Assembly: GCA_947169235.1 (NCBI GenBank)
Contig: CAMVOY010000011.1
Coordinates: forward strand, 1-48,873
Source: an uncultured Lachnospiraceae bacterium
Lineage (GTDB): Bacteria; Bacillota; Clostridia; Lachnospirales; Lachnospiraceae
DNA: 48,873 nucleotides
Direction of reading: 5' to 3'
Below, in pieces: positions 1,280 to 40,462 of the stretch. Below the pieces are notes generated by a model. That model did no database searches and was not told the origin of the DNA. It saw only the letters and a program-made list of their open reading frames with translations. The first letter of the stretch is position 1; each line of letters opens with the position of its first letter. The translations under genes were made by a program, and so were the position numbers.

Positions 1280-3487
1280 ATGTTTAAAAAACTATCCGAA
1301 ACTTGGAACGACCTGAATCGGTCAATATACACCGGAAAAAGGTTGAAGGCAAATCTCAGAGCACTGACGATCGTCAGCTTGTTTACCGCGATACTGGGAT
1401 TTATACTTATCGTCTTGGATTTGATCGTAAAGGAATACGAGATGATCCTGCCCTCAGCCATAACTTTTCTGGCCGGAGTTATCTGTGCAATATTATCAGG
1501 GGTGCTCAAGCGCAGAAACCTTGCAATACTGGTACCGACGGCTTTTTGTTTCATTGCGTTTTCTTATTACGCCATTACCGGAGCTGCAGCAGGTACTGCC
1601 ATCCTCTGGTCTCTGTTATTGCCTATCGGAATGGGATATTTTGTCAGTGTTAAATACAGTATCTATCTGTCCGCATACTATATAATTCTATATTCGGTTT
1701 TGTTTTACAGCCCACTTCGTGAGTATGTAAAACCCTATTATTCAGATGGCCTTATGGCAAGATTTCCAATACTTTTTGCCAGTATGGCTATTTTTACCTC
1801 GATCGCGATGATACAGTATCACAGAAGTATCCTTTTTGAGATCGAGTACACTTTCAGATTGAATGAAGAGGTTAAAAAACAAACGGCTGTTGCCAAGGAG
1901 AGAGCTGAAAAGATAGAACAGATGTCTTTCCAGACCATTCAGACTCTGGCATATGCGATAGATGCCAAAGACCCATATACAAAAGCGCATTCGACGCGCG
2001 TGAGTTCATACTCCGTAAAGATCGCAGAAGCTTTGGGTTGGGATGAAGAAAGAGTTAATAATCTCAGGTATGCAGCATTGTTGCATGATATAGGAAAAAT
2101 AGGAGTTCCGGACTCTATCCTAAACAATCCGAAACGACTTCCGGAGGTTGAATACGAGATAATCAAATCCCATACGACCATGGGTGAGGAAATACTAAAG
2201 GGCAGAAGCAGTATTCCTGCTGCCGCAGATGTTGCACTCAGTCATCATGAACGTTATGACGGAACCGGTTATCCGAACGGCCTCAAGGGGAAAGAGATCT
2301 CTGAGGAGGCGAGGATAGTCGCGATAGCTGATGCTTTTGATGCAATGAATTCTGATCGTATATATCGTAAGGCATATAAAAATGATCATATAAGTCACGA
2401 GCTTATTAAGGAACGTGGGCGCCAGTTTGATCCTCATTTTGTGGATGTATTTATCAGGCTTTGGGACAGCGGTCAGCTCAATGATATCATGAGAGAGGAT
2501 AGCGCGGGAACGGATGAACCGACTGAGGTATCATCGGCACTTTTGCAGGAGGTTATGGAGTCGTTTGCTGCGCAAAATGCGGCTGATGAGATCGATGTCG
2601 CGACCGGTATTATGAGTCGAAATGCCGGTGAAAGTGCGATCGCTCATGAAATGAAAGAGAACGAAGGATGTTTTGTATTCTTCGATCTAGATAATCTGAA
2701 AAGGATAAACGATATAAACGGTCATGAGGCAGGCGATAGGGTTCTCCATATGGTTGGTGATACTCTCCTTGAGAATCAGAAAGGGAATATGTGCTGCAGA
2801 CTGGGCGGTGACGAGTTTATTCTTTTCATGAAGAATATATCAAAAGAAAATGCGGCATCTCAGATAGAAATAATACTTAGTGAATTTGAAAAAAAGAAAG
2901 AAGGCGATTCAACTGTTTCCATTGGTTCTCTGTCTGCCGGAGCCGTCATGTGTACGCCTGATGATGATTATGAAACGATATACAATAAAGCTGATAAGGC
3001 GCTGTACAGTATCAAACAAAACGGAAAAGACGGTTATGTTTTTTATACTGATGAACTCGAGGATTTCAGCAGTGAACGGGTGGATGTAAACAAGATGGTT
3101 TCTGCCATTGAAAACAGTGGAAGCTACAGAGGCGCTCTTGATGTTGAGTACAGAGAGTTTACCAAGCTGTATGAGTTTGTCGGAAAGATGGAAAAGCGAT
3201 TCGATCAGCAGTTCAGGCTTATCATGATCTCTCTTGATCCGGCACCGGGTGAAGAACTTCATGAGGAGGAGCTTGACCGGGCTATGTATTATATGGAACG
3301 GTCGATCCTGCAGGCTATCCGGGATGTTGATATTTTTACCAGGTACAATCGCCAACAGGTGCTGGTCATCCTTCTGGGAACGGATGAGTCAGGCGTAAAG
3401 AGCGCTGTCGATCGTATATTCCGTGGATTCTTTAAAATGAATGGAAGCGGCAGATTCTCACCATCTTATACGGTGGTTGAGAAGTGA
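1280..3487 (+). CDS. Membrane HD-GYP / GGDEF cyclic-di-GMP signalling protein
   Basis: A 735-aa membrane protein predicted to make and/or break cyclic di-GMP. About six hydrophobic segments fill residues 20-185, then a short coiled linker. The HD-GYP phosphodiesterase domain (about 215-385) has its full motif set: TKAHSTRV, LLHDIGKIGVPD, HHERYDGTGYPNG and AIADAFDAM. A GGDEF domain (about 440-590) keeps FFDLDNLKRIND and RLGGDEF, with no RxxD inhibitory site just upstream. The last 130 residues look like a second, degenerate GGDEF (TRYNRQQVLVILLG) without the signature. I chose ATG 1280 because AAGGGGAAAGA precedes it; ATG 1250 lacks a ribosome site. Whether both activities operate cannot be told from sequence. 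Confidence 0.93.
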   Translation: MFKKLSETWNDLNRSIYTGKRLKANLRALTIVSLFTAILGFILIVLDLIVKEYEMILPSAITFLAGVICAILSGVLKRRNLAILVPTAFCFIAFSYYAITGAAAGTAILWSLLLPIGMGYFVSVKYSIYLSAYYIILYSVLFYSPLREYVKPYYSDGLMARFPILFASMAIFTSIAMIQYHRSILFEIEYTFRLNEEVKKQTAVAKERAEKIEQMSFQTIQTLAYAIDAKDPYTKAHSTRVSSYSVKIAEALGWDEERVNNLRYAALLHDIGKIGVPDSILNNPKRLPEVEYEIIKSHTTMGEEILKGRSSIPAAADVALSHHERYDGTGYPNGLKGKEISEEARIVAIADAFDAMNSDRIYRKAYKNDHISHELIKERGRQFDPHFVDVFIRLWDSGQLNDIMREDSAGTDEPTEVSSALLQEVMESFAAQNAADEIDVATGIMSRNAGESAIAHEMKENEGCFVFFDLDNLKRINDINGHEAGDRVLHMVGDTLLENQKGNMCCRLGGDEFILFMKNISKENAASQIEIILSEFEKKKEGDSTVSIGSLSAGAVMCTPDDDYETIYNKADKALYSIKQNGKDGYVFYTDELEDFSSERVDVNKMVSAIENSGSYRGALDVEYREFTKLYEFVGKMEKRFDQQFRLIMISLDPAPGEELHEEELDRAMYYMERSILQAIRDVDIFTRYNRQQVLVILLGTDESGVKSAVDRIFRGFFKMNGSGRFSPSYTVVEK

Positions 3488-3521
3488 TGAAGAGGTATAA
3501 AAGTTGTGGCATAATACCGGA

Positions 3522-3575
3522 TCATATGGTATAATGTAACAGATTCTGTGGTTGGCTTTTCTTGTGCAGGTGTGC
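3522..3575 (+). promoter_or_regulatory. Extended -10 promoter and leader of the amidase operon, copy B
   Basis: TGG-TATAAT (-10 at 3530-3535) forms a strong extended -10. CTGTGGT follows at 3546-3552, ten bases downstream. A TTGTGG at 3504-3509 would be a -35 with a spacer of 20, too long to be convincing. It is near-identical over the first ~37 bases to the sequence at 722 ahead of the YunG-like gene. Confidence 0.6.
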
Positions 3576-3620
3576 ATGAAAAACTTTATGCCGGATAATA
3601 GGAGTAAAGACTATGAATAG
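3576..3620 (+). other. Possible 14-codon leader ORF overlapping the amidase start
   Basis: ATG at 3576 follows AGGTG and opens a 14-codon frame (MKNFMPDNRSKDYE) that stops at TAG 3618-3620, overlapping the amidase ATG at 3613 in another frame. The ribosome site is only about 4 bases from the ATG. In promoter copy A the same AGGTGTGCA directly serves the YunG-like gene, so this frame could be a relic of that leader or a coupling device. Confidence 0.25.
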
Positions 3621-4512
3621 TACTTACAGAAAAGAGTTGATACGATCGATCTGTTCACTCACACTCGCTATGTCTTTGGTGGGTACAAGCATGGGAAATG
3701 CGGACATAGCAAGAGCTGATACAGTAAAGACTACATACGTAAAGACCAAAGTAAAGCTTAAATCCAAGTGGAAATACGCAAAGAATTCAAAGATAAAAAG
3801 CGGGAAAGCCATACTCTATACCGTCACCTCATCAAATGCCAAAAACATAACGGTATGTATAAATGCCGGTCACGGAACAAAGGGAGGCGAGAGTGTGAAG
3901 ACTCTGTGCCATCCGGATGGCAGCCCGAAGATCATCAGCGGCAGCACCAAGGCAGGAGCGATCTATGCTGTTGCCGTAGCCGGCGGGATGAGCTTTAAGA
4001 ACGGAACGAGCGAGTACGCAGCTACACTCAAGGTGGCAAAGAAAGCAAGAAAGCTTCTTTTGGATAAGGGATACAATGTTCTTATGATCCGCGAGAAGAG
4101 CGACGTCCAGCTTGATAATATTGCTCGTACTTTGATCGCAAATCATTACGCTGACTGTCATATAGCGATCCACTACGACGATGATGGTTTGTCGTACGAC
4201 AAGGGATGCTTTTTCTGCAGCATTCCAAACAGTAAAAGCTACAAGAACATGGAGCCAGTCAAATCTCATTGGAAGGAGCATATGAAGCTCGGTAAAAAGG
4301 CAGTTGCCGGACTTGTTAAGGCCGGTATTAAAAAGATGGGAAATGGAACACTGGCTATGGATCTGACGCAGACATCATACAGTACTGTTCCGTCGATAGA
4401 TCTCGAGGTCGGAAATCAGTGCTCAGATCTTTCATCTAAAACAATAAAAAAAGTAGCAAAAGGAATTTGCTATGGAGTAGATAAATTCTTCAAGGCTTAT
4501 CCGGTCCACTGA
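3613..4512 (+). CDS. Secreted N-acetylmuramoyl-L-alanine amidase (Amidase_3)
   Basis: Cleaves the amide bond between muramic acid and the stem peptide of peptidoglycan, outside the membrane. The 299-aa product starts with a signal peptide (charged start, hydrophobic SLTLAMSLVGTS, small residues near 30-37). The zinc hydrolase domain covers about 78-299. Likely ligands and catalytic residues are His87 (INAGHGTKGG), Glu134 (TSEYAAT), His187 (IAIHYDDD) and Glu265 (SIDLEVG). No cell-wall binding repeats are attached; residues 37-75 are a lysine-rich linker. AGGAG at 3600-3604 sets the start. The STAS-kinase gene follows 29 bases later with no promoter visible, so cotranscription is likely. The substrate-facing loop is larger than in minimal family members. 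Confidence 0.88.
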   Translation: MNSTYRKELIRSICSLTLAMSLVGTSMGNADIARADTVKTTYVKTKVKLKSKWKYAKNSKIKSGKAILYTVTSSNAKNITVCINAGHGTKGGESVKTLCHPDGSPKIISGSTKAGAIYAVAVAGGMSFKNGTSEYAATLKVAKKARKLLLDKGYNVLMIREKSDVQLDNIARTLIANHYADCHIAIHYDDDGLSYDKGCFFCSIPNSKSYKNMEPVKSHWKEHMKLGKKAVAGLVKAGIKKMGNGTLAMDLTQTSYSTVPSIDLEVGNQCSDLSSKTIKKVAKGICYGVDKFFKAYPVH

Positions 4513-4541
4513 TATATAATAAAAAAAGAGGAGAGAAGCAA

Positions 4542-5729
4542 ATGAAAACAGAAAAAAATGAAAATGTTATAACCATTTATCTCGAGGGAAGGATTGACTC
4601 CACAAACGCACCCGATATTGACAATGAGATCATGGATACCCTGTCGCAGAACGAGGGGGCGGTTCCCGTGTTTGACGCATCGGGCCTTGAGTATATCTCG
4701 AGTGCCGGACTCCGCGTGCTGATGAAGGTCAGAAAGACATTGGAACAGCCGGTCGATGTAGTAGAAGTTTCATCAGAGATTAATGACATTTTCGAGACCA
4801 CAGGTTTTACAGATCTTCTGAATGTGAAAAAGAAGCTGAAGGAGATATCTGTCGATGGCCTTGAGCTGATCGGAGCAGGCGGTTATGGAAGTGTGTACAG
4901 GATAGATGATGAGACGATCGTTAAGGTTTATCATGAAGGTGTGTCGAGAGACTTTGTTGAGAGTGAGAAGGAGTCTTCTAAGGATGCATTTAAGTTCGGA
5001 ATACCGACTGCCATTTCCTTTAACACTGTTAAAGTTGGAAGTCAGTACGGTGTGATCTACGAGCTTTTTAATGCAAAGACTATGGCGCAGCTGATAACTG
5101 ATGATCCGTCGAGACTGCAGGAGCTCGGTGTAAAGATGGCGCTGAAACTGAAGGAACTCCATCAGATCGAAGTGCCGGCTGACAAGGGTTTCGCTGATCG
5201 AAAGGATATCCTAAGGGACTTTATTTCTCAGCTCGCAGGAGTGCTTACCGCGGATGAGATCGGAAAGATGAATGCCCTGCTCGATAGCATACCGGACAGA
5301 AATACATTTTTACATGGTGATTATAATTCAAAAAATATCATGCTCCAGGATGATGAGATTCTTTTGATCGATCTTGGTGATGCTGCGTACGGACATCCGA
5401 TATTTGATGTCGCTATGCTGATGCTTGCTTACGTCGTTCTTCCGAACAGTCAGGTACTTGATGAAAAATCACGTCGCCATCTGCTCGGCTTTGACCCTGA
5501 GCTCGCTCCGAAAATGTGGGGTACTATGTGTGGAACGTATTTCGGCGTGCAGTCACCTGAGGAGATTGAAGCCATAACAAAACAGATAATGCCTCTTGTG
5601 TTTTTCTACGTTGCTTTCCAGGGATTTACTACCGGAAGGGCAACGCCTGAGGTCACCGCGCAGCATATCATCAGAGAGAAGCTGATGCCTCTTCTGGATG
5701 CAGGCGTACAGTTGAAGCTTGATTTTTGA
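4542..5729 (+). CDS. STAS domain fused to an APH-like kinase
   Basis: A cytoplasmic two-domain protein of 395 aa. Residues 1-100 are a STAS (anti-sigma-factor-antagonist) domain with GLEYISSAGLRVLMK; the adjacent serines 53-54 match the phosphorylated site of SpoIIAA-type proteins. Residues 105-395 form a kinase of the aminoglycoside/choline phosphotransferase type: glycine loop GAGGYGSVYR near 111, lysine in IVKVYH, catalytic HGDYNSKNIM at 258, and metal-binding LIDLGDAAYG at 277. All key residues are present, so it should be active. The substrate is unknown; it might phosphorylate its own STAS domain, a partner, or a small molecule. The phosphatase gene starts 14 bases after its stop, suggesting opposing activities. 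Confidence 0.87.
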   Translation: MKTEKNENVITIYLEGRIDSTNAPDIDNEIMDTLSQNEGAVPVFDASGLEYISSAGLRVLMKVRKTLEQPVDVVEVSSEINDIFETTGFTDLLNVKKKLKEISVDGLELIGAGGYGSVYRIDDETIVKVYHEGVSRDFVESEKESSKDAFKFGIPTAISFNTVKVGSQYGVIYELFNAKTMAQLITDDPSRLQELGVKMALKLKELHQIEVPADKGFADRKDILRDFISQLAGVLTADEIGKMNALLDSIPDRNTFLHGDYNSKNIMLQDDEILLIDLGDAAYGHPIFDVAMLMLAYVVLPNSQVLDEKSRRHLLGFDPELAPKMWGTMCGTYFGVQSPEEIEAITKQIMPLVFFYVAFQGFTTGRATPEVTAQHIIREKLMPLLDAGVQLKLDF

Positions 5730-5743
5730 GTGTGAGGTAGTCT

Positions 5744-6562
5744 ATGGAGCAGAGTATAAATCTAAGCAGTGTCGGGAATGCCCGTGAGTTAGGTGGTCTC
5801 GAGGTTGCAGGACAAGTGATAAAAAAGGGTTGCCTTTTGCGCACTGCAGCGCTCTCGGAATTATCGAAGGAAGATTCGGTTATACTTGAAAAAGAGTACC
5901 ATGTGTTCGCTATAGTGGATCTTCGCATGAGCTTAGAGAGACATGTTACGCCCGATCCTGTTATCCCCGGAGCGAAGAATCTGTTTCTGCCCGTGATGGA
6001 GGGGGAGGATTACGACGATTTTGATGAGGAGACTGCAAGAATGCTCACAGATCCGAATGCGGATCGTTTCGAGTTGATCAAAAAGTCTTATGATATGGGA
6101 ATGATGGGGGATGACCTCTATGTGGATTTCCTTTTTTCTGATAGAGGAAAGGCGGCCTACGGAGCATTTTTCAAATGTCTTTTAGAATTACCGGAGGGTC
6201 GCTCAGTCCTGTGGCACTGTACGGACGGAAAAGATCGTACAGGGGTCGCGTCTATGCTGATACTTACAGCGTTAGGTGCGGATAGAGAAACGATCTTAAA
6301 GGACTATATGTTGACGAATAAATACAATGAAAAGAAGCTCAAGATGGCTGAAGCCAGCCTCAAGCATGCGCCTATACCTGATGATCTGAAAGAGCTTGCG
6401 TTGTTCGGCGCAGGTGCTGTGATCGAGAGGTATATGACGAACGCTATGGATGCCATGACTGAGCGATGCGGCTCGCCTATGGAGTACCTGTCGACAGAGC
6501 TTGGTGTCGGTGTTGACGAAATAGAAAAGCTACGTAATAAGTTTCTTTCTACCCATGGCTGA
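5744..6562 (+). CDS. Cys-based protein phosphatase of the Tyr/Ser phosphatase-3 type
   Basis: A 272-aa cytoplasmic phosphatase of the Y_phosphatase3 / dual-specificity class. It opens with the family motif NARELGGLEVAG and LLRTAALSEL, and its active-site loop is HCTDGKDRTG with nucleophile Cys159 and phosphate-binding Arg165. A general-acid Asp is probably in the DLRMSLERHVTPDP region or the loop near VDFL. No signal peptide is seen. It is the last gene of the operon starting with the amidase, and its pairing with the STAS-kinase suggests it reverses that kinase's phosphorylation; related enzymes also act on phosphoinositides, so the substrate is open. GAGGTAG ahead of the ATG serves as ribosome site. 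A 6-bp hairpin straddles its stop codon (6559-6577). Confidence 0.88.
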   Translation: MEQSINLSSVGNARELGGLEVAGQVIKKGCLLRTAALSELSKEDSVILEKEYHVFAIVDLRMSLERHVTPDPVIPGAKNLFLPVMEGEDYDDFDEETARMLTDPNADRFELIKKSYDMGMMGDDLYVDFLFSDRGKAAYGAFFKCLLELPEGRSVLWHCTDGKDRTGVASMLILTALGADRETILKDYMLTNKYNEKKLKMAEASLKHAPIPDDLKELALFGAGAVIERYMTNAMDAMTERCGSPMEYLSTELGVGVDEIEKLRNKFLSTHG

Positions 6563-6668
6563 CTAAGCACAAGTCAGTGTAAACGAAGAGGGGGTTGCGA
6601 AGCTCGGAGATATCAAGGACCTTGCTAACTCATAATAAAACATTTTCATAAATGGTGGTTGATCTAAA

Positions 6669-6699
6669 GAAAAAAGCCCTGTGAGCCGGGGCTTTTTTC
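6669..6699 (+). terminator. Rho-independent terminator after the phosphatase operon
   Basis: A perfect 11-bp stem (GAAAAAAGCCC with GGGCTTTTTTC) and a 9-base loop, with the U-tract inside the 3' arm. It sits 107 bases after the phosphatase stop and only 4 bases before the next promoter. Because the A-run mirrors the T-run, it could work in both directions. Bases 6578-6668 hold nothing I can identify. Confidence 0.9.
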
Positions 6700-6703
6700 T
6701 TGC

Positions 6704-6732
6704 TTGACAAACAGCGTAAAACTGTCTACAAT
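6704..6732 (+). promoter_or_regulatory. Promoter of the LRR-VWA-MoxR-TIR operon
   Basis: TTGACA (6704-6709), a 17-base spacer, then TACAAT (6727-6732): a near-consensus vegetative promoter. It lies inside the 5' end of the longest open frame, which shows that the frame's upstream TTG codon is not the real start. Confidence 0.85.
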
Positions 6733-6772
6733 CGATGTTGCAAAGGATGTTTTGAAAGAATATGGTGGAGCT

Positions 6773-7672
6773 ATGAGGTTTGAGTACAGAGAAGTATCAG
6801 ACGGCATATCTATAGATGCTGTTTACGGGGATATCGGTGAGGTCGTAATCCCCGATATGATAGACGGAAAACCTGTCAGGGAGATATCAGCCTACGCTTT
6901 TTCCGGTAAGGATATTAATCCTGATGATGGTGACGGGATAGAGTTCAGACTTGCAGGAGATGTGCTTAAGTCCGTCACGCTTCCTGATACCCTGGAAAAA
7001 ATAGGCGAACTGTGTTTTTATCAGTGCTATGATCTGAAGTCAATATCACTTCCGAATACCGCTATAGAGATCGGAAGTGATGCTTTTATGAACTGCAAAA
7101 AGCTTGATACTCTTTTTATACGGGGAAGTGTAAAAGAACCGTCTTCTTTGAGACAGATCCTGCTCCAGAGGACATCTGCCACGGATGTGTGGTTTGATGA
7201 TGCTGCGATTCATTTTTCTGAGTACTCTGAAAAGTATGACCTTATCGGACCTGCACATATATTTGAGTTAAATATAGAGGGAGAAGGGTTTAGAGCCAGG
7301 AAGTGTTTTGACGGTGATGTGTTTGATGTAGGGATGTATGATACCGTTTTTGAAAAAGCGAAGGATACTGAGGATGAAAAGACACTTTGCAAGACGGCGG
7401 CGCTTAGGCTGTCAAGGCCTGCAGGGCTTACCGATGAGATAAAAGAAAGCTATCTGGATTATCTTTTATCTCATATGGATGTCTATCTGGATGATGTGAT
7501 AAAGCATAGGGATCTGTCGCTGATAGAGGGACTCGGAAGAGAAGGTTTTTTATCTGATGAAACAGTAGCTATTGCACTGAAAAAGATGACCGCCGCAAGG
7601 TGGACGGAAGGTGTAGCGAAACTTCTTGCGTGGAAGAGTGAGTGGGGTAAATGTAATCTCTGCGTGATGTAA
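6773..7672 (+). CDS. BspA-like leucine-rich-repeat protein
   Basis: A 299-aa protein without signal peptide or membrane segment, so probably cytoplasmic. Residues about 10-115 hold BspA/LRR_5-type repeats (VVIPDMIDGKPVREISAYAF, LKSVTLPDTLEKIGELCF, LKSISLPNTAIEIGSDAF). The last ~110 residues are helical, with short repeated units resembling ankyrin-like C-terminal regions (YLDYLLSH, LIEGLGREGFLSDE, VAKLLAWK). ATG 6773 is chosen because GGTGGAG lies 4-10 bases upstream and the promoter overlaps the longer frame. It is first in an operon with a VWA-like protein, a MoxR ATPase and a TIR protein; LRRs usually bind ligands, so a recognition or adaptor role is inferred. Codons are richer in AGA/AGG than in the ribosomal-type genes here. 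Confidence 0.8.
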   Translation: MRFEYREVSDGISIDAVYGDIGEVVIPDMIDGKPVREISAYAFSGKDINPDDGDGIEFRLAGDVLKSVTLPDTLEKIGELCFYQCYDLKSISLPNTAIEIGSDAFMNCKKLDTLFIRGSVKEPSSLRQILLQRTSATDVWFDDAAIHFSEYSEKYDLIGPAHIFELNIEGEGFRARKCFDGDVFDVGMYDTVFEKAKDTEDEKTLCKTAALRLSRPAGLTDEIKESYLDYLLSHMDVYLDDVIKHRDLSLIEGLGREGFLSDETVAIALKKMTAARWTEGVAKLLAWKSEWGKCNLCVM

Positions 7673-7707
7673 ATATGCATCTATGTAGTATAGGCTGATG
7701 GAGAAAT

Positions 7708-9018
7708 ATGAGTAAAGTTTTATATGAAAACTCACACACGGTGTGGGAGGAAAAAACTGCTGAAAAGGCTATACAAGTTGTCGCCGATGACCTGCTGAAA
7801 GAGTTCAGGTTTTTAAGCGGTGCTCTTTTTGCGTTTGAATATAAACCGGATGTAAGACTTATTTCAGCTGCTACTGACGGAGAAAAATACTACTATAACA
7901 GTGGTAAAATACTTAAACTCTTTGAAGATAATTATAACTATTTTTTAAGAGCATATCTTCACAGTGTTTTGCACTGCCTTTTTATGCATCCATGGCTGAA
8001 AGGAAACAGGGATAAAAGGCTGTGGGATATCGCTTGTGATATCGCTGTGGAACACACCATAGATATGATGAATAAAGATGCTCTGAAAAGACCTGTTAGT
8101 TTGATAAGAAAAAAGATATATGATGAGTTTGTATCAGAAGGAAGAACCGTCGCTGCGGTACCTGTTTACAGATATCTCAGGGCGCTTTCATCAGAGCAGA
8201 TAGAGGGAATAGAAAAGGAGTTTTTTACCGATGACCACGTGTTCTGGCCGAAGGAAGAAAAGCTTTCCGAAGAGCAGATTGCGCTGAAGAATAAATGGCA
8301 GGATATAGGAAAGAATACAGAAAGAAAAAAGAAACAGTCAGGTGATCCAGATGAAGATGCAGATGTATCTATGTCAAAGCAGATCAGAGCTGCCAAGAGT
8401 AGGCGAAGCTATCGGAAGTTTTTAAAGGATTTCATGGTCATGAGGGAGGAATTAAAAACAGATCCTGATGAGTTTGATCTCGGTCTTTATATGTACGGTC
8501 TGAAACTGTATAAAAACATGCCACTCATCGAGCCTTTAGAAACAAAGGAAGAAAAGAGAGTCAGGGATTTTGTTGTAGTTGTAGATACCAGTTACTCGAC
8601 AAGCGGAGAGCTTGTAAAAGGATTCTTAAATGAGACCTTTAAACTGCTTACCGAGGATGATTCGTTTTTCAGAGAGGGAAGAGTTCATGTGATCCAGGCT
8701 GATGATAAGGTCAGGTCTGATAAGGTGATAAAAAGAGTAGATGAGATAGACAGTATGTTTGAAGATTTTGAGATAAGAGGAGGAGGAAATACGGACTTCA
8801 GACCGGCATTTCAATATGTGGATGAGCTTGTAGAGGATGGAGCTTTTGAAGACCTGTGCGGGCTTTTGTACTTTACGGACGGCCGAGGGATATATCCTAA
8901 AAAACAGCCCCGATATAAGACTGCATTTTTATATTTGGAGCCGTATGATAAAGAGCAGGTTCCGCCGTGGGCGATACAGCTGATGCTGGATGATGAAGAG
9001 TTCAGATTTTGGAGGTGA
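7708..9018 (+). CDS. DUF2201 protein: metallopeptidase-like domain plus VWA-like domain
   Basis: 436 aa, no signal peptide. The N-terminal half resembles the putative metallopeptidase domain of DUF2201 proteins, with AYLHSVLHCLFMHPWL near residues 82-97 and DIACDIAVEHTIDMM after it; His-rich spacing suggests metal binding, but a canonical HExxH is absent. A charged linker (about 190-235) leads to a VWA-like C-terminal domain with VVVVDTSYSTSGE (a MIDAS-like DxSxS variant, DTSYS) and GGGNTDFRP. Proteins of this family are typically encoded with a MoxR-type ATPase, exactly as here: the ATPase gene starts 3 bases after this stop, and its ribosome site GGAGG lies inside this gene. Role inferred: ATPase partner that binds or processes a client. 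Confidence 0.85.
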   Translation: MSKVLYENSHTVWEEKTAEKAIQVVADDLLKEFRFLSGALFAFEYKPDVRLISAATDGEKYYYNSGKILKLFEDNYNYFLRAYLHSVLHCLFMHPWLKGNRDKRLWDIACDIAVEHTIDMMNKDALKRPVSLIRKKIYDEFVSEGRTVAAVPVYRYLRALSSEQIEGIEKEFFTDDHVFWPKEEKLSEEQIALKNKWQDIGKNTERKKKQSGDPDEDADVSMSKQIRAAKSRRSYRKFLKDFMVMREELKTDPDEFDLGLYMYGLKLYKNMPLIEPLETKEEKRVRDFVVVVDTSYSTSGELVKGFLNETFKLLTEDDSFFREGRVHVIQADDKVRSDKVIKRVDEIDSMFEDFEIRGGGNTDFRPAFQYVDELVEDGAFEDLCGLLYFTDGRGIYPKKQPRYKTAFLYLEPYDKEQVPPWAIQLMLDDEEFRFWR

Positions 9019-9021
9019 AAA

Positions 9022-10257
9022 ATGAATATAAAAGAAGCAAAAACAGAGGTAATTAATACCGTAAAAACATATCTGAAAAAAGATGCAAACAAAGAGTATG
9101 TTATTCCGTCCATACGTCAGCGTCCGCTCTTACTTATCGGCCCTCCGGGAGTCGGCAAAACTCAGATCATGGAGCAGGTTGCGACGGAGTGTGATATAGG
9201 TCTCGTCGCATATACCATCACTCATCACACGAGACAGACTGCCGTGGGTCTGCCCTTCATAAAGGAAAAAAAATATGACGGAAAAACCTACTCCGTTACC
9301 GAGTATACGATGAGTGAGATCATCGCAAGCATCTATGACCTGATGGAGGAGACCGGACACAGAGAGGGTATTCTTTTTATAGATGAGATCAACTGTGTGT
9401 CGGAAACTCTGGCGCCTACCATGTTGCAGTTTTTGCAGTGTAAAACCTTTGGAAACCAGGAGGTGCCAAAGGGTTGGATAATAGTTGCGGCGGGCAATCC
9501 TCCCGAGTATAACAAGTCAGTAAGAGAGTTTGATGTCGTTACGCTTGATCGTGTGCGCCGGATCCCTGTGGAAGCTGACTACGGAGTATGGAAGGAGTAT
9601 GCTGCCTCTGCGGGCATACATCGCGCGATCAGAGGTTATCTTGATATCCATCCGGGAGATTTTTACAGGATGGAGACTGATACCGACGGAAGACATTTCG
9701 TGACAGCCAGAGGCTGGGAGGATCTGAGCAATCTTTTGACGGTGTATCATGAGGAACATATACCTGTAACAAAGGATGTCATATATGAGTATCTGTCACA
9801 GGAGGATGTGGCAGAGGAGTTCTCCGCGTACTTGGATCTTTACTTCAAATATGAGGATGAGTATCCGATCGATGAGATACTTTCGGGAAGTGCGCCGAGT
9901 GTAATTTATGAAAGATTATTAAAGGCCGGATTTGATGAAAGGATCACTGTAGTTGAGCTTATCATCACGGCACTGTTAAACCGAGTGGGAGAGTATTTTT
10001 CAAAAAAAGATTCGGCAGGATCAGGTGATATCAAAAGCAGTGTGGCAGCGGCGCTTGAGAGTGCATTCACCTTTATTGAGGAGGCGTTTACATCCGGAAG
10101 TGAGATGGTGCTTTTTGTTACCGAGCTTTCCATATCAACGGAAGCTGTACTGTTTTTAATGGAGTCACCGAGTGAAAAATATCTGAAGTATTCAAAAGAG
10201 TACCTGACCGGGAGCAGGCGTGGGGAGCTTCTTTCCGAGATCAGATCAAATGAATAA
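9022..10257 (+). CDS. MoxR-type AAA+ ATPase
   Basis: A 411-aa AAA+ ATPase. Walker A is GPPGVGKTQ (residues 40-48), Walker B is ILFIDEINC (about 116-124), and sensor-1 is probably the Asn in IIVAAGNPPEYN, followed by the arginine-finger region DRVRRIPVE. The layout matches MoxR/CbbQ-like ATPases, which remodel a partner with the help of a VWA protein. The helical C-terminal part (250-411) is less conserved. Its start overlaps functionally with the VWA-like gene, so the two are probably made in fixed ratio. Position between the VWA and TIR genes implies that ATP hydrolysis controls assembly or activation of the neighbours; this is inference. Confidence 0.92.
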   Translation: MNIKEAKTEVINTVKTYLKKDANKEYVIPSIRQRPLLLIGPPGVGKTQIMEQVATECDIGLVAYTITHHTRQTAVGLPFIKEKKYDGKTYSVTEYTMSEIIASIYDLMEETGHREGILFIDEINCVSETLAPTMLQFLQCKTFGNQEVPKGWIIVAAGNPPEYNKSVREFDVVTLDRVRRIPVEADYGVWKEYAASAGIHRAIRGYLDIHPGDFYRMETDTDGRHFVTARGWEDLSNLLTVYHEEHIPVTKDVIYEYLSQEDVAEEFSAYLDLYFKYEDEYPIDEILSGSAPSVIYERLLKAGFDERITVVELIITALLNRVGEYFSKKDSAGSGDIKSSVAAALESAFTFIEEAFTSGSEMVLFVTELSISTEAVLFLMESPSEKYLKYSKEYLTGSRRGELLSEIRSNE

Positions 10258-10277
10258 AATATCAGTGGGTAATTGTT

Positions 10278-12719
10278 ATGGGAAATCTGAATGAAATGCA
10301 TTATGATGCATTTATAAGTTACAGGCACAACGAAAAGGACAGTTATATTGCAAAATCCATCCACAAAAGGCTGGAGACCTTTAAGCTGCCCCGCGCGCTG
10401 CGTAAAAACCTTGACTTTGATGTTAAGGGGATAACAAGAGTTTTTCGTGACGAGGAGGAGCTGCCGCTTTCTTCGGATCTTTCGGATACCATAAATAATG
10501 CCCTTCAGAACTCCGAATATCTTATCTGCATATGCACGCCCGAGTATCTGAACTCGAGCTGGTGTATGATGGAGGTCGAGTCATTTTTACGTATCAGGGA
10601 TCATTCGCATATATTGGTTGTTTTGGCTGATGGTGAGCCCGAAGATTCCTTCCCGGAGATACTTACGTTTGAGGATGTACAGATACGGGATGATGATGGG
10701 TCTGTCCGTATCGAGAGAAAAAAGATTGAGCCTTTGGCGGCTGATGTCAGAGGGCAGAATAAAAGAGAAACAGATAAAAAAATGGAAGCGGCTGTCATGC
10801 GCCTTTGTGCATCTATTATTGGGGTGAATTATGATGACCTCAGGCAGCGTCATCGCGAAGCAAAGCTAAAAAGGCTTATTGCACTTTCAACATGTATAGG
10901 TGCCTGCCTTTTGGTTTTTGGAATATTTGTTTCCGTTACTTTTTTGGAAATAAGTCGTCAGAATGATGAGATCACAAAGCAAAATACAGAGATAAATAAA
11001 CAGAATATGACGATCCGCGAGCAGTATGCTGAACTTCGGGATAAGCATGCGGCCAGTGTCGCGGAAACTGCAAATGAGCAGCTTTCAAAAGGACGTCGCA
11101 TGGATGCGATAGAGGCTCTTTATAGTGTGATGCCCGAGGATGATAAAACACCATACAATCCCAAAGCAGTTGCGACTCTTTACAAGGCTATGAACACCTA
11201 TGGGATTGAGAATAAATACGCTCCGGTAAAGACATATGATATGGATATGGAGCTTTCATCCTTTAACGTTTCGTATGATGCCCGGTATATCATGCTGGAT
11301 GACTACATGAATATCAGAATATTTGATGTGGAAAGCGGCGAAGTTATCGCTGATCATGTCAGACCTTCGGGTGAAGCAGGAGAAGAGTTCACCGGTGGTT
11401 TTTGTGGATCTTCCGGTTATATGATTGCGGATAAGAAAACTTGGAGATATTATTCATTAACGGGTGGAAAAGAAAGAACCATCGAATTGGCCGGCGATTA
11501 TTTCGTATTTAATGAGTCAAAGGATGGAAAGATCACACTGTGTTTCTGCGATGACGTGATCGTAGGTATAGATAATGAAGGGAAAATACGTTATAAGATC
11601 GATCTGGAAAAGATGTTTGGGAAACACGACATGCTGAATATATCGAGTGTTTCATTTGATAAAGGTCGGTTTGCATACATGCTAAATGATGGTGAATACA
11701 TTTACCTTATCGTGGCAGATGAAAAAGACGGAAGCATTATATATTCCGACAAAAAACACTGTGAAAATGCGGTCTCATGTACTCTTAGCGGTGAAACGAT
11801 CATATATACGACGGCCGCAAGTGTTGAAACAAAGGTTCATGCCGTCGATATCAGGAGCAAAAAACTCCTTTGGGATTCAGTCGTTTCAGAGTATGTTGAA
11901 GGGAATATTATTGTAGGTAAAAAGAAGATCTATCTGTATGGAGACAGGATCATAGTGTCTTTGAATGCTAAAGATGGAAAGGTTGTCAGTGTGTATTGTC
12001 CGGATGAAACTGTGGTAAAGGGGTGGATGGAGGATGATGGGTTTGCCTATCTGTGTAGTAACGCCAAGTTTTATATTTATAGGGACAATTCTTCTATCGA
12101 GTATACCGATACAAAGTTTGTATTTGCTCCTGAAGAAGGTCTCAGAAATGTCACGATCTCCGGGAAGAGTATGTTTTGTTGTAACGAAAGGGCAGATAAC
12201 GTGGTCAGATACTCTGTGGAGAATGCCAAGGGTTGTGAGAACATCGGAAAGGAATATGAAGGGAAGTATTCTGTCTACCAAAGAGACGAGAATGAAGATG
12301 CGGAAGATGTTGATGCTGTATTGAAAAAATCTCCGGATGTAAAAATGGCGATGGTTGACAATGTATTTTATTCGGCGGATAAAAAACTGATTGTCGCGTC
12401 TCTCAGAGACCACACGATACAGATTGTAGATGCATCAACGCTAAAACAGCTAACGGTCGTGGATGTCGGAGATCAGGGATGGATAGATGGGGTTCGTTTT
12501 TCGGAGCTTACCGGGTCATACATGATCGATTTTCCCTATGAAACTATTATTCTTGACAAGGATTATAACGTCATAAGTGAGACGTGCAGGATCGTGGATG
12601 AGGTGGATGGATCGTTTGTTATGATGAACAGCGCCTGCGATTATTACAAGCTTCCATACGTTTCATATGAAGAGTTACTTTTGAGGACCGAGCGGCTCCT
12701 AGAAAGCATCCAATCATGA
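10278..12719 (+). CDS. TIR - transmembrane - beta-propeller protein (paralogue 1)
   Basis: 813 aa. Residues 6-150 form a TIR domain: YDAFISYRHNEKD, FRDEEELPLSSDL, and SSWCMMEVESF, whose Trp95 and Glu99 align with the W-x3-E of NAD-cleaving TIRs such as SARM1. A transmembrane helix follows (about 198-222, IGACLLVFGIFVSVTF), then a Gln/Asn-rich coiled coil (ITKQNTEINKQNMTIREQ), a short helical AIEALYSVMPEDD segment, and about 500 residues of beta-propeller-like repeats (WD40/PQQ-like, e.g. IRIFDVESGEV, IQIVDASTLKQLTVVDV). With no signal peptide and one helix, the TIR should be cytoplasmic and the propeller outside. It is the last gene of the operon. The ribosome site is weak; ATG 10296 is an alternative start. 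Confidence 0.88.
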   Translation: MGNLNEMHYDAFISYRHNEKDSYIAKSIHKRLETFKLPRALRKNLDFDVKGITRVFRDEEELPLSSDLSDTINNALQNSEYLICICTPEYLNSSWCMMEVESFLRIRDHSHILVVLADGEPEDSFPEILTFEDVQIRDDDGSVRIERKKIEPLAADVRGQNKRETDKKMEAAVMRLCASIIGVNYDDLRQRHREAKLKRLIALSTCIGACLLVFGIFVSVTFLEISRQNDEITKQNTEINKQNMTIREQYAELRDKHAASVAETANEQLSKGRRMDAIEALYSVMPEDDKTPYNPKAVATLYKAMNTYGIENKYAPVKTYDMDMELSSFNVSYDARYIMLDDYMNIRIFDVESGEVIADHVRPSGEAGEEFTGGFCGSSGYMIADKKTWRYYSLTGGKERTIELAGDYFVFNESKDGKITLCFCDDVIVGIDNEGKIRYKIDLEKMFGKHDMLNISSVSFDKGRFAYMLNDGEYIYLIVADEKDGSIIYSDKKHCENAVSCTLSGETIIYTTAASVETKVHAVDIRSKKLLWDSVVSEYVEGNIIVGKKKIYLYGDRIIVSLNAKDGKVVSVYCPDETVVKGWMEDDGFAYLCSNAKFYIYRDNSSIEYTDTKFVFAPEEGLRNVTISGKSMFCCNERADNVVRYSVENAKGCENIGKEYEGKYSVYQRDENEDAEDVDAVLKKSPDVKMAMVDNVFYSADKKLIVASLRDHTIQIVDASTLKQLTVVDVGDQGWIDGVRFSELTGSYMIDFPYETIILDKDYNVISETCRIVDEVDGSFVMMNSACDYYKLPYVSYEELLLRTERLLESIQS

Positions 12720-12724
12720 AAATG

Positions 12725-12740
12725 CGGGTAAAGATACCCG
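12725..12740 (+). other. Short hairpin after TIR gene 1
   Basis: CGGGTA-AAGA-TACCCG forms a perfect 6-bp stem 5 bases after the TIR stop. No T-run follows, so it is not a standard terminator; it might protect the 3' end of the message. Confidence 0.4.
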
Positions 12741-12762
12741 AAAATACGTTATCAGCAGGCAG

Positions 12763-12791
12763 TTGACGTGGGATAAAAACTGTGGTATTAT
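12763..12791 (+). promoter_or_regulatory. Promoter of map (and probably valS onward)
   Basis: TTGACG (12763-12768), a 17-base spacer and TATTAT (12786-12791) with a TGG extension just before it. This separates the housekeeping run from the TIR operon. Confidence 0.82.
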
Positions 12792-38221: not shown

Positions 38222-40462
38222 ATGGGAAAGTATACTTCACTTAGAGATCAGCTTACTATTGAGGAAAAGGCGGCATTGATCCACGCCTCGACATTTTTCA
38301 ATTCGGGATGTGTAGAGAGACTTGGCATACCCGGACTGAAGATGAATGACGGACCGAATGGTGTTCGTCAGGAGTTCGAGCCGGACAGCTGGAGACCGAT
38401 CGGAGACACAGCAGATCTGGTTACATGGATGCCTTCCAATACATGCCTTGCATCTACATGGAGCAGGGAGCTCGCCGAGAAGTTCGGTGAGGTGCTCGGC
38501 GAGGAAGCAAGAGGACGAGGAAAGGATGTTATCCTCGCACCCGGTATCAATATCAAACGTACTCCTCTTTGCGGAAGAAATTTTGAGTACATGAGCGAGG
38601 ATCCCGTCCATGCCGGAGAGATCGCTGTACCTCTTATTAAGGGAATACAGAAAAATGATGTGGCTGCTTGTGTAAAACATTTTGCGTTAAATAACCAGGA
38701 GCTCGAAAGACTTTTGGTAGAGGCCAAGGTTGATGAAAAAACTCTCCAGGAGCTTTATCTGCCTGCATTCAAGAAAGCATGTTTGGAGGGTGACAGCTAC
38801 TCGATCATGGGAGCATACAACCGCGCAAACGGAGAATACTGCTGCAATAACAAGCATCTGCTCGTGGATATCCTTCGTGATATGTGGAACTATCAGGGCG
38901 TGGTCGTATCCGATTGGGGCGGCGTCCAGGAGACAGAGGCTACCATCGACCACGGCGTGGATATCGAGATGAGTATATTTGATGCGTTCGATGACTATTT
39001 CCTCGCAAATCCGGTTATAAAACTCGTAAAAGAGGGCAAGGTTTCCGAGGAAAAACTGAATGAACGCGTAGATCGTATATTGGCACTTTTGGAGAAGCTG
39101 CACGTCGGAGAGCCTGAGCACAAACAGGGATCTCTTAATACAAAAGAGCATCAGGATGCCATCGAGGAGGTTGCAGAGGAGGGTATCGTCCTTCTGAAAA
39201 ATGACAGAAACCACCTCCCGATATCACCTGTACGCGAGGATGGTACATATAAAAAGGTCCTCGTTGTAGGCGACAATGCCACCAGGAACAACGGACTCGG
39301 AGGAGGTTCGTCAGAGATCAAGATGCTCTACGCCATCACTCCGATGCTGGGTCTCAATATGACAAGAGGAGGAGATGTTTCGTACAAATGGCTTCCGGGC
39401 TATTATCTTGACAACGAGGACGAACTCTCCATCAATGATGAGTGGCAGGCATCGAGTCTCGAGACACAGGAACAGGTTAAGTCGGGAGAAAAGGAAGGCA
39501 GCTATGCCGATCTTGTAAAAGAAATGGTAATGTTTGCGCCCGAGGAGACGAGGGATGAGGATGCTATTAAAAAGGATTATGAAGAGAGGATCCTTCCGCA
39601 TCGCGAGGCTTACAAAAAAGCAGTGCTCGATGCGATACCTGATTACGATGAGGTTATTTTTATAGGCGGTCTGAACCACTCATTCGATGTGGAGGGATAT
39701 GACAAGAAGTCAATCACTCTTCCGTATGCGCAGGACGAGCTTATCGAGGCCATGGCTGATGCCGCCGGAGACAAGCTGACCGTTGTTATCATGTGTGGCT
39801 CTGCTGTGGAGATGCCGTGGATCGACAAGGTTCATTCTCTCCTTCAGCTCTCGTATGCCGGTCAGAACGGAGGCCTTGCACTCGCACGTACTCTCTACGG
39901 AGACGTGAATCCGTCAGGAAAGCTTCCGGAAACCTATCCGATAAAGCTCGCCGATACTCCTACGGAAAAATATAATTCATATCCCGGAGAGATCGGTCCC
40001 GAGGGACATCGAGTATGCGAGTACACCGAGAAACTCATGGTGGGCTATCGTTATTATGAGACAGAAAAAGTTGATGTACTCTTCCCGTTTGGTTATGGAT
40101 TGAGTTACACATCTTTTGTTATTGAGAATTGTTCAAACACTATCACGGGGGCACTTGGAAGCGGTCTTTCGATAGAGGTTACGGGAAATCTGAGAAACAC
40201 CGGAGACAGGGACGGAAAGGAAGTCATCCAGCTTTATGTGGGACTGCCTGAGTCAGATCAGCCGGTGAAACTTCTGAAGGACTTTATAAAGGTTGAAGCA
40301 AAGCAGGATAGCTCTACACCGTTTAGTATGTCTATAGATGAGTCGGATCTTATGACCTATGATACGGAAACGAACTCGTTCAGTGCCAAGCCCGGAACAT
40401 ACCACATCTACATGGGGACATCGGTTAGAGATATCGTTTATGAAGTAGAGGTGGAATTGTGA
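38222..40462 (+). CDS. Beta-glucosidase-type glycoside hydrolase family 3 enzyme
   Basis: A cytoplasmic GH3 enzyme of 746 aa that releases terminal sugars from beta-glucosides or similar substrates. The N-terminal TIM barrel has [39 protein letters not shown]-type sequence and [11 protein letters not shown], with nucleophile Asp231. The alpha/beta sandwich domain follows ([31 protein letters not shown]), then a fibronectin-III-like C-terminal domain ([18 protein letters not shown]). No signal peptide. An insertion near residues 400-470 is rich in charged residues. AGGAGGAAG precedes the ATG. The TGA stop overlaps the GTG start of the TIR gene, so the two are probably translationally coupled. 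Confidence 0.95.
   Translation: [746 protein letters not shown]

What the first reader, a model, noticed from the sequence alone, without database searches (positions are those of the whole stretch)
6669..12719. Self-contained LRR / DUF2201-VWA / MoxR ATPase / TIR-TM-propeller operon
Seen: a terminator, then a near-consensus promoter, then four same-strand genes with gaps of 35, 3 and 20 bases, then a new promoter for map. Known: MoxR-type ATPases work with VWA partners, and MoxR/VWA pairs with varied extra modules have been proposed by comparative genomics as conflict systems; TIR domains are common effectors in such systems. Inference: the LRR protein senses, the ATPase/VWA pair switches, and the membrane TIR protein is effector or receptor. 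I know of no described system with exactly this set. The AGA/AGG-rich codon use differs from flanking housekeeping genes.
Basis: partly seen in the sequence, partly recalled or inferred. Interest (0 to 1): 0.8.

Follow-up and report, generated by a model that had tools for sequence, protein, structure and literature searches.

The report
LRR-adaptor MoxR/VWA machine; TIR gene optional
Three of the four genes look like a conserved, apparently undescribed ATP-driven protein-remodelling machine found in about half of the sampled relatives, while the fourth gene, the TIR gene that made it look like a defence system, is a separable neighbour that the closest relative lacks.

Summary
The four genes are there, tightly packed on one strand. 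Comparison with relatives splits the proposed system in two.

The LRR, DUF2201-VWA and MoxR-type ATPase genes are a real module. The ATPase is found in 160 of 299 genomes of the window's family. An LRR-family gene lies beside it in 73 of 81 loci, and beside the VWA in 72 of 80 named loci fetched by the VWA family alone. One relative fuses the whole LRR protein to the VWA protein; three fuse only its C-terminal domain.

The TIR gene is separable both ways. G594, the closest relative, has LRR-VWA-ATPase-map without it. G600 has TIR-map with no ATPase gene before it.

Best reading: an LRR-guided MoxR/VWA remodelling chaperone. The VWA partner keeps a His3/Asp/Glu set but lacks the catalytic Glu of HExxH in 78 of 79 members. 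The LRR repeats are under purifying selection. ATPases lacking a C-terminal insert go with LRR proteins lacking a C-terminal tail, with two fused exceptions. Client and function are unknown. New variant of a known kind.

The parts
6570..6635 (+). Remnant: last 21 codons and stop of a Big_2 gene, left by a deletion of about 13.3 kb relative to relative G594
   Evidence: Same letters and register as the end of the 630-aa ORF L136:14461-16353 (Big_2 8.6e-10); flanks meet at window 6569/6570
6670..6698 (+). Terminator-like hairpin with T run (of the deleted upstream gene)
   Evidence: Sequence; present with one base less in G594 downstream of the intact Big_2 gene
6704..6732 (+). Promoter-like site TTGACA-17-TACAAT
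   Evidence: Consensus scan, 11 of 12; not tested
6773..7672 (+). LRR protein, 299 aa: BspA-type repeats (residues 1-144), linker, C-terminal helical domain (about 186-294); proposed client adaptor
7708..9018 (+). DUF2201_N + VWA protein, 436 aa
   Evidence: Pfam above gathering scores; MIDAS residues D293, S295, S297, T362, D391 in 80 of 80
7960..7989 (+). HSVLHCLFMH: three conserved His of a zincin-like site, with the catalytic Glu position (residue 86) substituted
   Evidence: H85 and H89 in 79 of 79 rows without a gap, H94 in 78; Glu at 86 in 1 of 79
9022..10257 (+). MoxR-type AAA+ ATPase, 411 aa (short class: lacks about 90 residues, helical by look of the sequence, after the AAA core)
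   Evidence: AAA 6.5e-9, AAA_5 2.5e-8; G40, G45, K46, T47, D121, E122, N159, R177, R230 in 81 of 81; length classes
10278..12719 (+). Separable neighbour: TIR - one TM (about residues 200-218) - C-terminal part with weak propeller-type scores, 813 aa
   Evidence: TIR_2 4e-13, PQQ_2 9.7e-4 below cut-off; SxWCxxE motif and one hydrophobic segment; absent from this site in G594; before map without the ATPase in G600
12763..12791 (+). Promoter-like site of map (TG before the -10)
   Evidence: Consensus scan; same letters in G594 right after the ATPase gene

Best explanation
The locus is a three-gene protein-remodelling machine plus an unrelated, optional TIR receptor-like gene that sits at the map site. 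Proposed working of the machine: the MoxR-type ATPase forms an AAA+ ring; the VWA protein rides on it as co-chaperone; the LRR protein is the client adaptor, its repeats binding the client and its C-terminal helical domain holding it to the VWA/ATPase core. ATP hydrolysis moves the VWA protein and so strains or opens the client, as proposed for NorQD. The N-terminal DUF2201 domain of the VWA protein keeps a metal-site-like His3/Asp/Glu set without the peptidase Glu, so it would bind or present a metal or peptide, not cut.

Shown here by sequence: the three-gene association, fusions, conserved sites, purifying selection, separability of TIR. Inferred: ring formation, adaptor role, docking of the LRR tail on the ATPase insert, metal binding, absence of proteolysis. 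Unknown: the client.
For: Prevalence: 160 of 299 family genomes have the ATPase at E<=1e-20, 158 of them below 1e-100; 25 of 39 genus genomes have the VWA. Association: LRR-family gene in 73 of 81 ATPase loci, plus one found with a C-domain profile; 17 of 19 genus loci and 72 of 80 named loci fetched by VWA. Both orders LRR-VWA-AAA and VWA-AAA-LRR occur. Fusions: L146 carries LRR_5 + DUF2201_N-like + DUF2201 in one 771-aa chain (DUF2201_N there below its cut-off); L073, L078, L102 fuse only the C-terminal domain to the VWA; L106, L110, L112 have a 113-165 aa protein of that domain alone. LRR, VWA and AAA distances agree (r 0.79-0.83, none of 999 permutations as high, 79 loci). LRR repeats: dN/dS 0.03-0.10 in the four of seven pairs with finite dS. 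Insert-tail covariation: tail in 0 of 9 short-class loci and 124 of 134 others. ATPase and MIDAS residues checked are invariant.
Against: No biochemical data and no client. Distance agreement is also expected from shared vertical descent alone. In L078 and L102 the ATPase is long (508-510 aa) although the helical domain is fused and has no free tail, against a simple tail-insert docking model. The covariation rests on few events (window clade; L034, with L207 alike), and the tail pattern was defined after seeing the data. Seven of 81 loci show no LRR-family gene, two of them at contig edges. dS is above 1 in several pairs, so dN/dS is rough. The structures of the VWA and ATPase proteins were not predicted, so the metal site and the insert are judged from sequence only. 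Neither the window VWA nor its family profile finds a solved relative at E<=1.
Confidence: 0.6

Rival explanations
1. Four-gene conflict/defence system: LRR senses, MoxR/VWA switches, membrane TIR is the effector.
For: All four genes are co-directional with short gaps. The glutamate of SxWCxxE is kept in all 10 TIR proteins aligned, the window's two included. The same four-gene order is in a congener, L138, TIR 85% identical. MoxR/vWA conflict systems with TIR modules are described (PMC7159879, passages).
Against: TIR beside the module in only 1 of 81, 1 of 19 and 1 of 80 loci, the last two very likely one contig. G594 has the trio at the map site without TIR and its TIR homologue on another contig; G600 has TIR before map with no ATPase match in the 1.4 kb upstream. 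In all five other congeners with a TIR homologue it is on another contig than the VWA gene, and none of their five TIR loci (flanks up to 1.5 kb) shows an ATPase match. No PADLOC system.
Confidence: 0.05
2. Three-gene (TIR-less) conflict module: the trio itself senses or restrains phage or other invaders, the LRR being the sensor.
For: General precedent of MoxR/vWA conflict systems (PMC7159879). Patchy within the genus, 25 of 39. Distant relatives of the VWA protein occur in Bacillus phage G and other phage records.
Against: No effector domain found by Pfam in the three window proteins. LRR repeats conserved between close species. Congeners L150, L151 and L153-L155 keep the trio beside genes of similar size and order. 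No plasmid of 72,556 holds a match over 80% of the VWA.
Confidence: 0.17
3. Metallochaperone: the trio inserts a metal into one enzyme, as NorQD does for NO reductase, with the DUF2201 site carrying the metal and the LRR recognising the enzyme.
For: NorQD is needed for metal insertion (PMC13036017). His3/Asp/Glu retained while the catalytic Glu is lost.
Against: No neighbour gene recurs at a fixed place that could be the client; metal binding not tested.
Confidence: 0.2

Closest known systems
NorQ/NorD (MoxR AAA+ with VWA partner; PMC13036017, abstract and passages read)
   Same: AAA+ ATPase plus MIDAS-bearing VWA partner; remodelling proposed to pass through the VWA protein, whose C-terminus and finger contact the ring.
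   Different: No DUF2201 domain or LRR adaptor is mentioned in the passages seen; our VWA profile matches no solved chain at E<=1.
RavA/ViaA of E. coli (PMC6987120, passages read)
   Same: MoxR ATPase with a helical region and a partner-binding domain beyond the AAA module; VWA partner (listing).
   Different: Here the region after the core carries a helical-looking insert or lacks it; an LRR-family gene is a usual third member. LARA was not tested for.
MoxR-vWA ternary conflict systems of Kaur et al. 2020 (PMC7159879; abstract, sections 8 and 22 and passages read)
   Same: MoxR + vWA + third component as the plan; weak bpMoxR score (3.7e-5, 23.3 bits, below the cut-off of 27).
   Different: No vWA C-terminal propeller, P-loop GPPGVGKT instead of the GXXXTAKS often seen there, third component an LRR protein; 'DUF2201' and 'leucine-rich' occur 0 times in that text, 'LRR' once.
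Other DUF2201/AAA pairs
   Same: DUF2201-type VWA protein; AAA gene beside it in 6 of 7 outgroup loci.
   Different: Five of seven outgroup proteins keep HExxH; the trio family has the Glu in 1 of 79. No LRR-family neighbour in the short flanks held for these seven.
BspA/TpLRR-type LRR proteins (6mlx, 4oju, 4gt6)
   Different: Several of the matched solved proteins are named cell-surface proteins; this one shows no signal peptide by eye and has a C-terminal helical domain for which three stand-alone copies match no Pfam family.

Membership tests
MoxR-clade AAA+ ATPase working with a VWA partner | Walker A/B, sensor and arginine residues of a ring AAA+ (roles recalled) | tested here: met
   Invariant in 81 of 81; Pfam AAA_5 2.5e-8
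MoxR-clade AAA+ ATPase working with a VWA partner | Helix-2 insert hairpin | tested here: inconclusive
   An insert-like stretch lies at about residues 68-100 by eye; no ATPase model could be run
MoxR-clade AAA+ ATPase working with a VWA partner | Adjacent VWA gene with intact MIDAS | tested here: met
   VWA gene in 80 of 81 loci; MIDAS residues in 80 of 80
MoxR-vWA-beta-propeller ternary conflict system | vWA component with C-terminal beta-propeller | tested here: not met
   The VWA domain reaches residue 427 of 436; definition from PMC7159879 section 22
MoxR-vWA-beta-propeller ternary conflict system | MoxR P-loop often GXXXTAKS ('often' in the source) | tested here: not met
   GPPGVGKT in the window; G40, G45, K46, T47 in 81 of 81
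DUF2201 (VWA-like) family with DUF2201_N metallopeptidase-like domain | Pfam gathering scores | tested here: met
   38.3 bits against 26.4; 33.8 against 23.2
Active zincin-type metallopeptidase | HExxH catalytic motif | tested here: not met
   HSVLH in the window; Glu in 1 of 79
Thoeris | ThsB-type TIR with ThsA partner (recalled) | tested here: not met
   ThsB_TIR 19.0 bits, below the cut-off of 21.2; no ThsA among matches of the four proteins
RavA/ViaA | LARA domain binding LdcI | not tested
   Only a look at the sequence after the AAA core

The most novel reading that the evidence does not exclude
A so far undescribed three-part MoxR/VWA machine in which an LRR protein is a dedicated client receptor: a helical adaptor domain that exists alone, carries LRR repeats, or is fused to the VWA protein, docking through a C-terminal Phi-x-Leu tail on a helical insert of the ATPase. 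A dead-peptidase domain with a conserved metal site passes ATPase force to one conserved client in many Lachnospiraceae and related Clostridia.
Probability: 0.3. Interest if true: 0.72.

Novelty: new variant of a known kind. Interest (0 to 1): 0.5.

Why it matters
About half of the sampled family would carry an AAA+ machine kept by purifying selection, with no function or client that my paper searches turned up; named loci include Anaerobutyricum hallii, Coprococcus comes, Faecalibacterium and Gemmiger. The adaptor logic (helical domain alone, with LRR, or fused) makes client hunting direct: pull down with the LRR protein. It also warns that a TIR gene beside a MoxR/VWA pair need not make a defence system: here the two come apart in both directions.

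Tried and rejected
TIR as part of the module: rejected by the census, by G594 and by G600. TIR detection was a search seeded with the two TIRs of the window at E below 1e-4, so very different TIRs could be missed. In G599 and G600 the contig ends near the trio, so there adjacency is judged from the TIR side only (no ATPase match in the 1.4 kb before TIR).

Neighbourhood as a clue: the two largest neighbour clusters (14 and 12 of 81 loci, scattered positions; one begins like an ABC-transporter ATPase, the other holds the window's 1250-3487 gene) show no fixed place; nothing else recurs in more than 6. Phage and plasmid records: 14 phage records match, of which 8 were listed: six short unannotated faecal contigs of 4-15 kb that may be bacterial DNA (my inference) and distant Bacillus phage G twice; 4 plasmids, none covering 80%.

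Range: of 299 genomes across the phylum 6 have the VWA at E<=1e-10, three of them of the window's own family including the window; one outside the family is a clear trio with LRR (L116). In a sample of 96 genomes of the order, trio-type VWAs also occur outside the family (L164-L166, L170, L172, all of family f137; LRR in three of these short loci). So it is not limited to one family.

Diversifying-sensor idea for the LRR: not supported; dN/dS is far below 1 in the four of seven pairs that gave a value, and the C-terminal domain, not the repeats, changes faster (dS saturated in the other three).

A first measure of the ATPase insert failed for 69 of 147 rows and was replaced by the length from RG[WF]ED to the end (143 of 180 loci used; dropped: 18 without free LRR-family ORF, 6 incomplete, 5 without AAA, 4 duplicates, 3 without motif, 1 with unknown residues). 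In the tree the label 'short' (11 rows) wrongly includes L044, cut by a contig end, and leaves out L143.

Papers: an LRR/DUF2201-VWA/MoxR module was not seen in the titles and abstract starts listed (open-access library only); 'DUF2201' or 'COG3864' occurs in 4 papers, seen as listing only.
Full report
OBSERVATION. The four ORFs, strands and gaps are as described, and Pfam supports each domain name, the propeller only by weak scores. The LRR gene more likely starts at ATG 6773 than at the TTG at 6704, which lies in the promoter-like site. The codon-use remark is true of LRR and VWA only.

WHO BELONGS TO WHOM. The ATPase protein was searched in 299 genomes of the window's family: 160 have a match at E<=1e-20, all but two of them below 1e-100. 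I fetched 80 of these loci, about half from the top of the list and half from lower down, which with the window makes 81. An LRR-family gene lies within 6.5 kb in 73 of 81 and a VWA gene in 80 of 81; a C-domain profile added one LRR-family partner. In 19 further genus loci the LRR-family partner is found in 17, and in 80 named loci fetched by the VWA family in 72. The family and named sets overlap to an unknown extent and are not added. Fusion proteins join the LRR protein (L146), or only its C-terminal domain (L073, L078, L102), to the VWA protein, and three loci have the C-terminal domain as a small protein of its own. So the constant third part is the helical domain, with the repeats as a usual but optional head. 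Outside the family it is rare in the phylum sample but present.

THE TIR GENE. Seven of 39 genus genomes have a TIR homologue at E<=1e-60; only the window and G612 have it on the contig of the VWA gene. Two relatives separate the parts. In G594 (LRR 99%, VWA 94%, ATPase 88% protein identity) the ATPase gene runs straight into the map promoter: 2.5 kb of the window (10233-12758) correspond to 50 bases there. In G600 a TIR gene (43% identical) lies before map (95% identical) with no ATPase match in the 1.4 kb upstream, and the VWA gene is on another contig. So TIR goes with the map site, not with the trio. The TIR protein has one hydrophobic segment at about residue 200, with positive residues before it, so the C-terminal part would lie outside (inference); the glutamate in SxWCxxE is kept in all 10 proteins aligned (its NADase role is recalled). 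It has two paralogues in the same genome.

HISTORY OF THE LOCUS. Window and G594 DNA is 97% identical from 3739 to 6569 and 98.5-100% from 6691 to about 8490, inside the VWA gene, then drops to 72-87%; the ATPase part is closer to G612 (82-92%). This looks like a recombination tract with a breakpoint in the VWA gene. At 6569/6570 about 13.3 kb of G594 are missing and the tail of its last gene remains at 6570-6635.

KNOWN KINDS. In NorQD the VWA partner contacts the ring by a finger and by its C-terminus, and the motor is proposed to twist the partner to let metal into the client (PMC13036017, abstract and passages). Kaur et al. describe MoxR-vWA ternary conflict systems; their beta-propeller group strictly has a propeller on the vWA protein (PMC7159879 section 22), not met here. 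The trio works like a MoxR/VWA chaperone; by the features tested it is not a member of that beta-propeller group, and the other groups of that paper were not tested one by one.

VERDICT. Module of three: strong. Chaperone with LRR adaptor: more likely than not. Defence: possible but unsupported. Client: unknown.

Noticed in passing
window 40459-43281 and G000 contig C29:5607-6596: Two more TIR proteins with one TM segment in the same genome, 35-36% identical to the one at 10278 over their N-terminal parts; a paralogous family of membrane TIR proteins.
   Followed up: partly
window 3739-8490: Tract almost identical (97-100%) to a congener whose DNA further on is only about 88% identical (map, valS): recent inter-species recombination covering amidase, STAS-APH kinase, tyrosine phosphatase, LRR and half of VWA.
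   Followed up: yes
L136/L137 (G594), between the phosphatase and LRR genes: About 13.3 kb present in G594 and missing in the window: ABC-transporter genes, a response-regulator protein, a Big_2 protein and others.
   Followed up: partly
L158 (G600), 1423-3924 and 4465-5415: A TIR gene directly before map without the trio, so the map upstream site seems to hold TIR genes independently.
   Followed up: partly
L073:170-3676: 1168-aa open frame that starts like an M20-type peptidase (by eye) and runs into the helical domain, DUF2201 and VWA; a real fusion or a merged frame.
   Followed up: no
window 4542-5729: STAS domain fused to an APH-family phosphotransferase-like kinase, next to a Y_phosphatase3 protein.
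   Followed up: no
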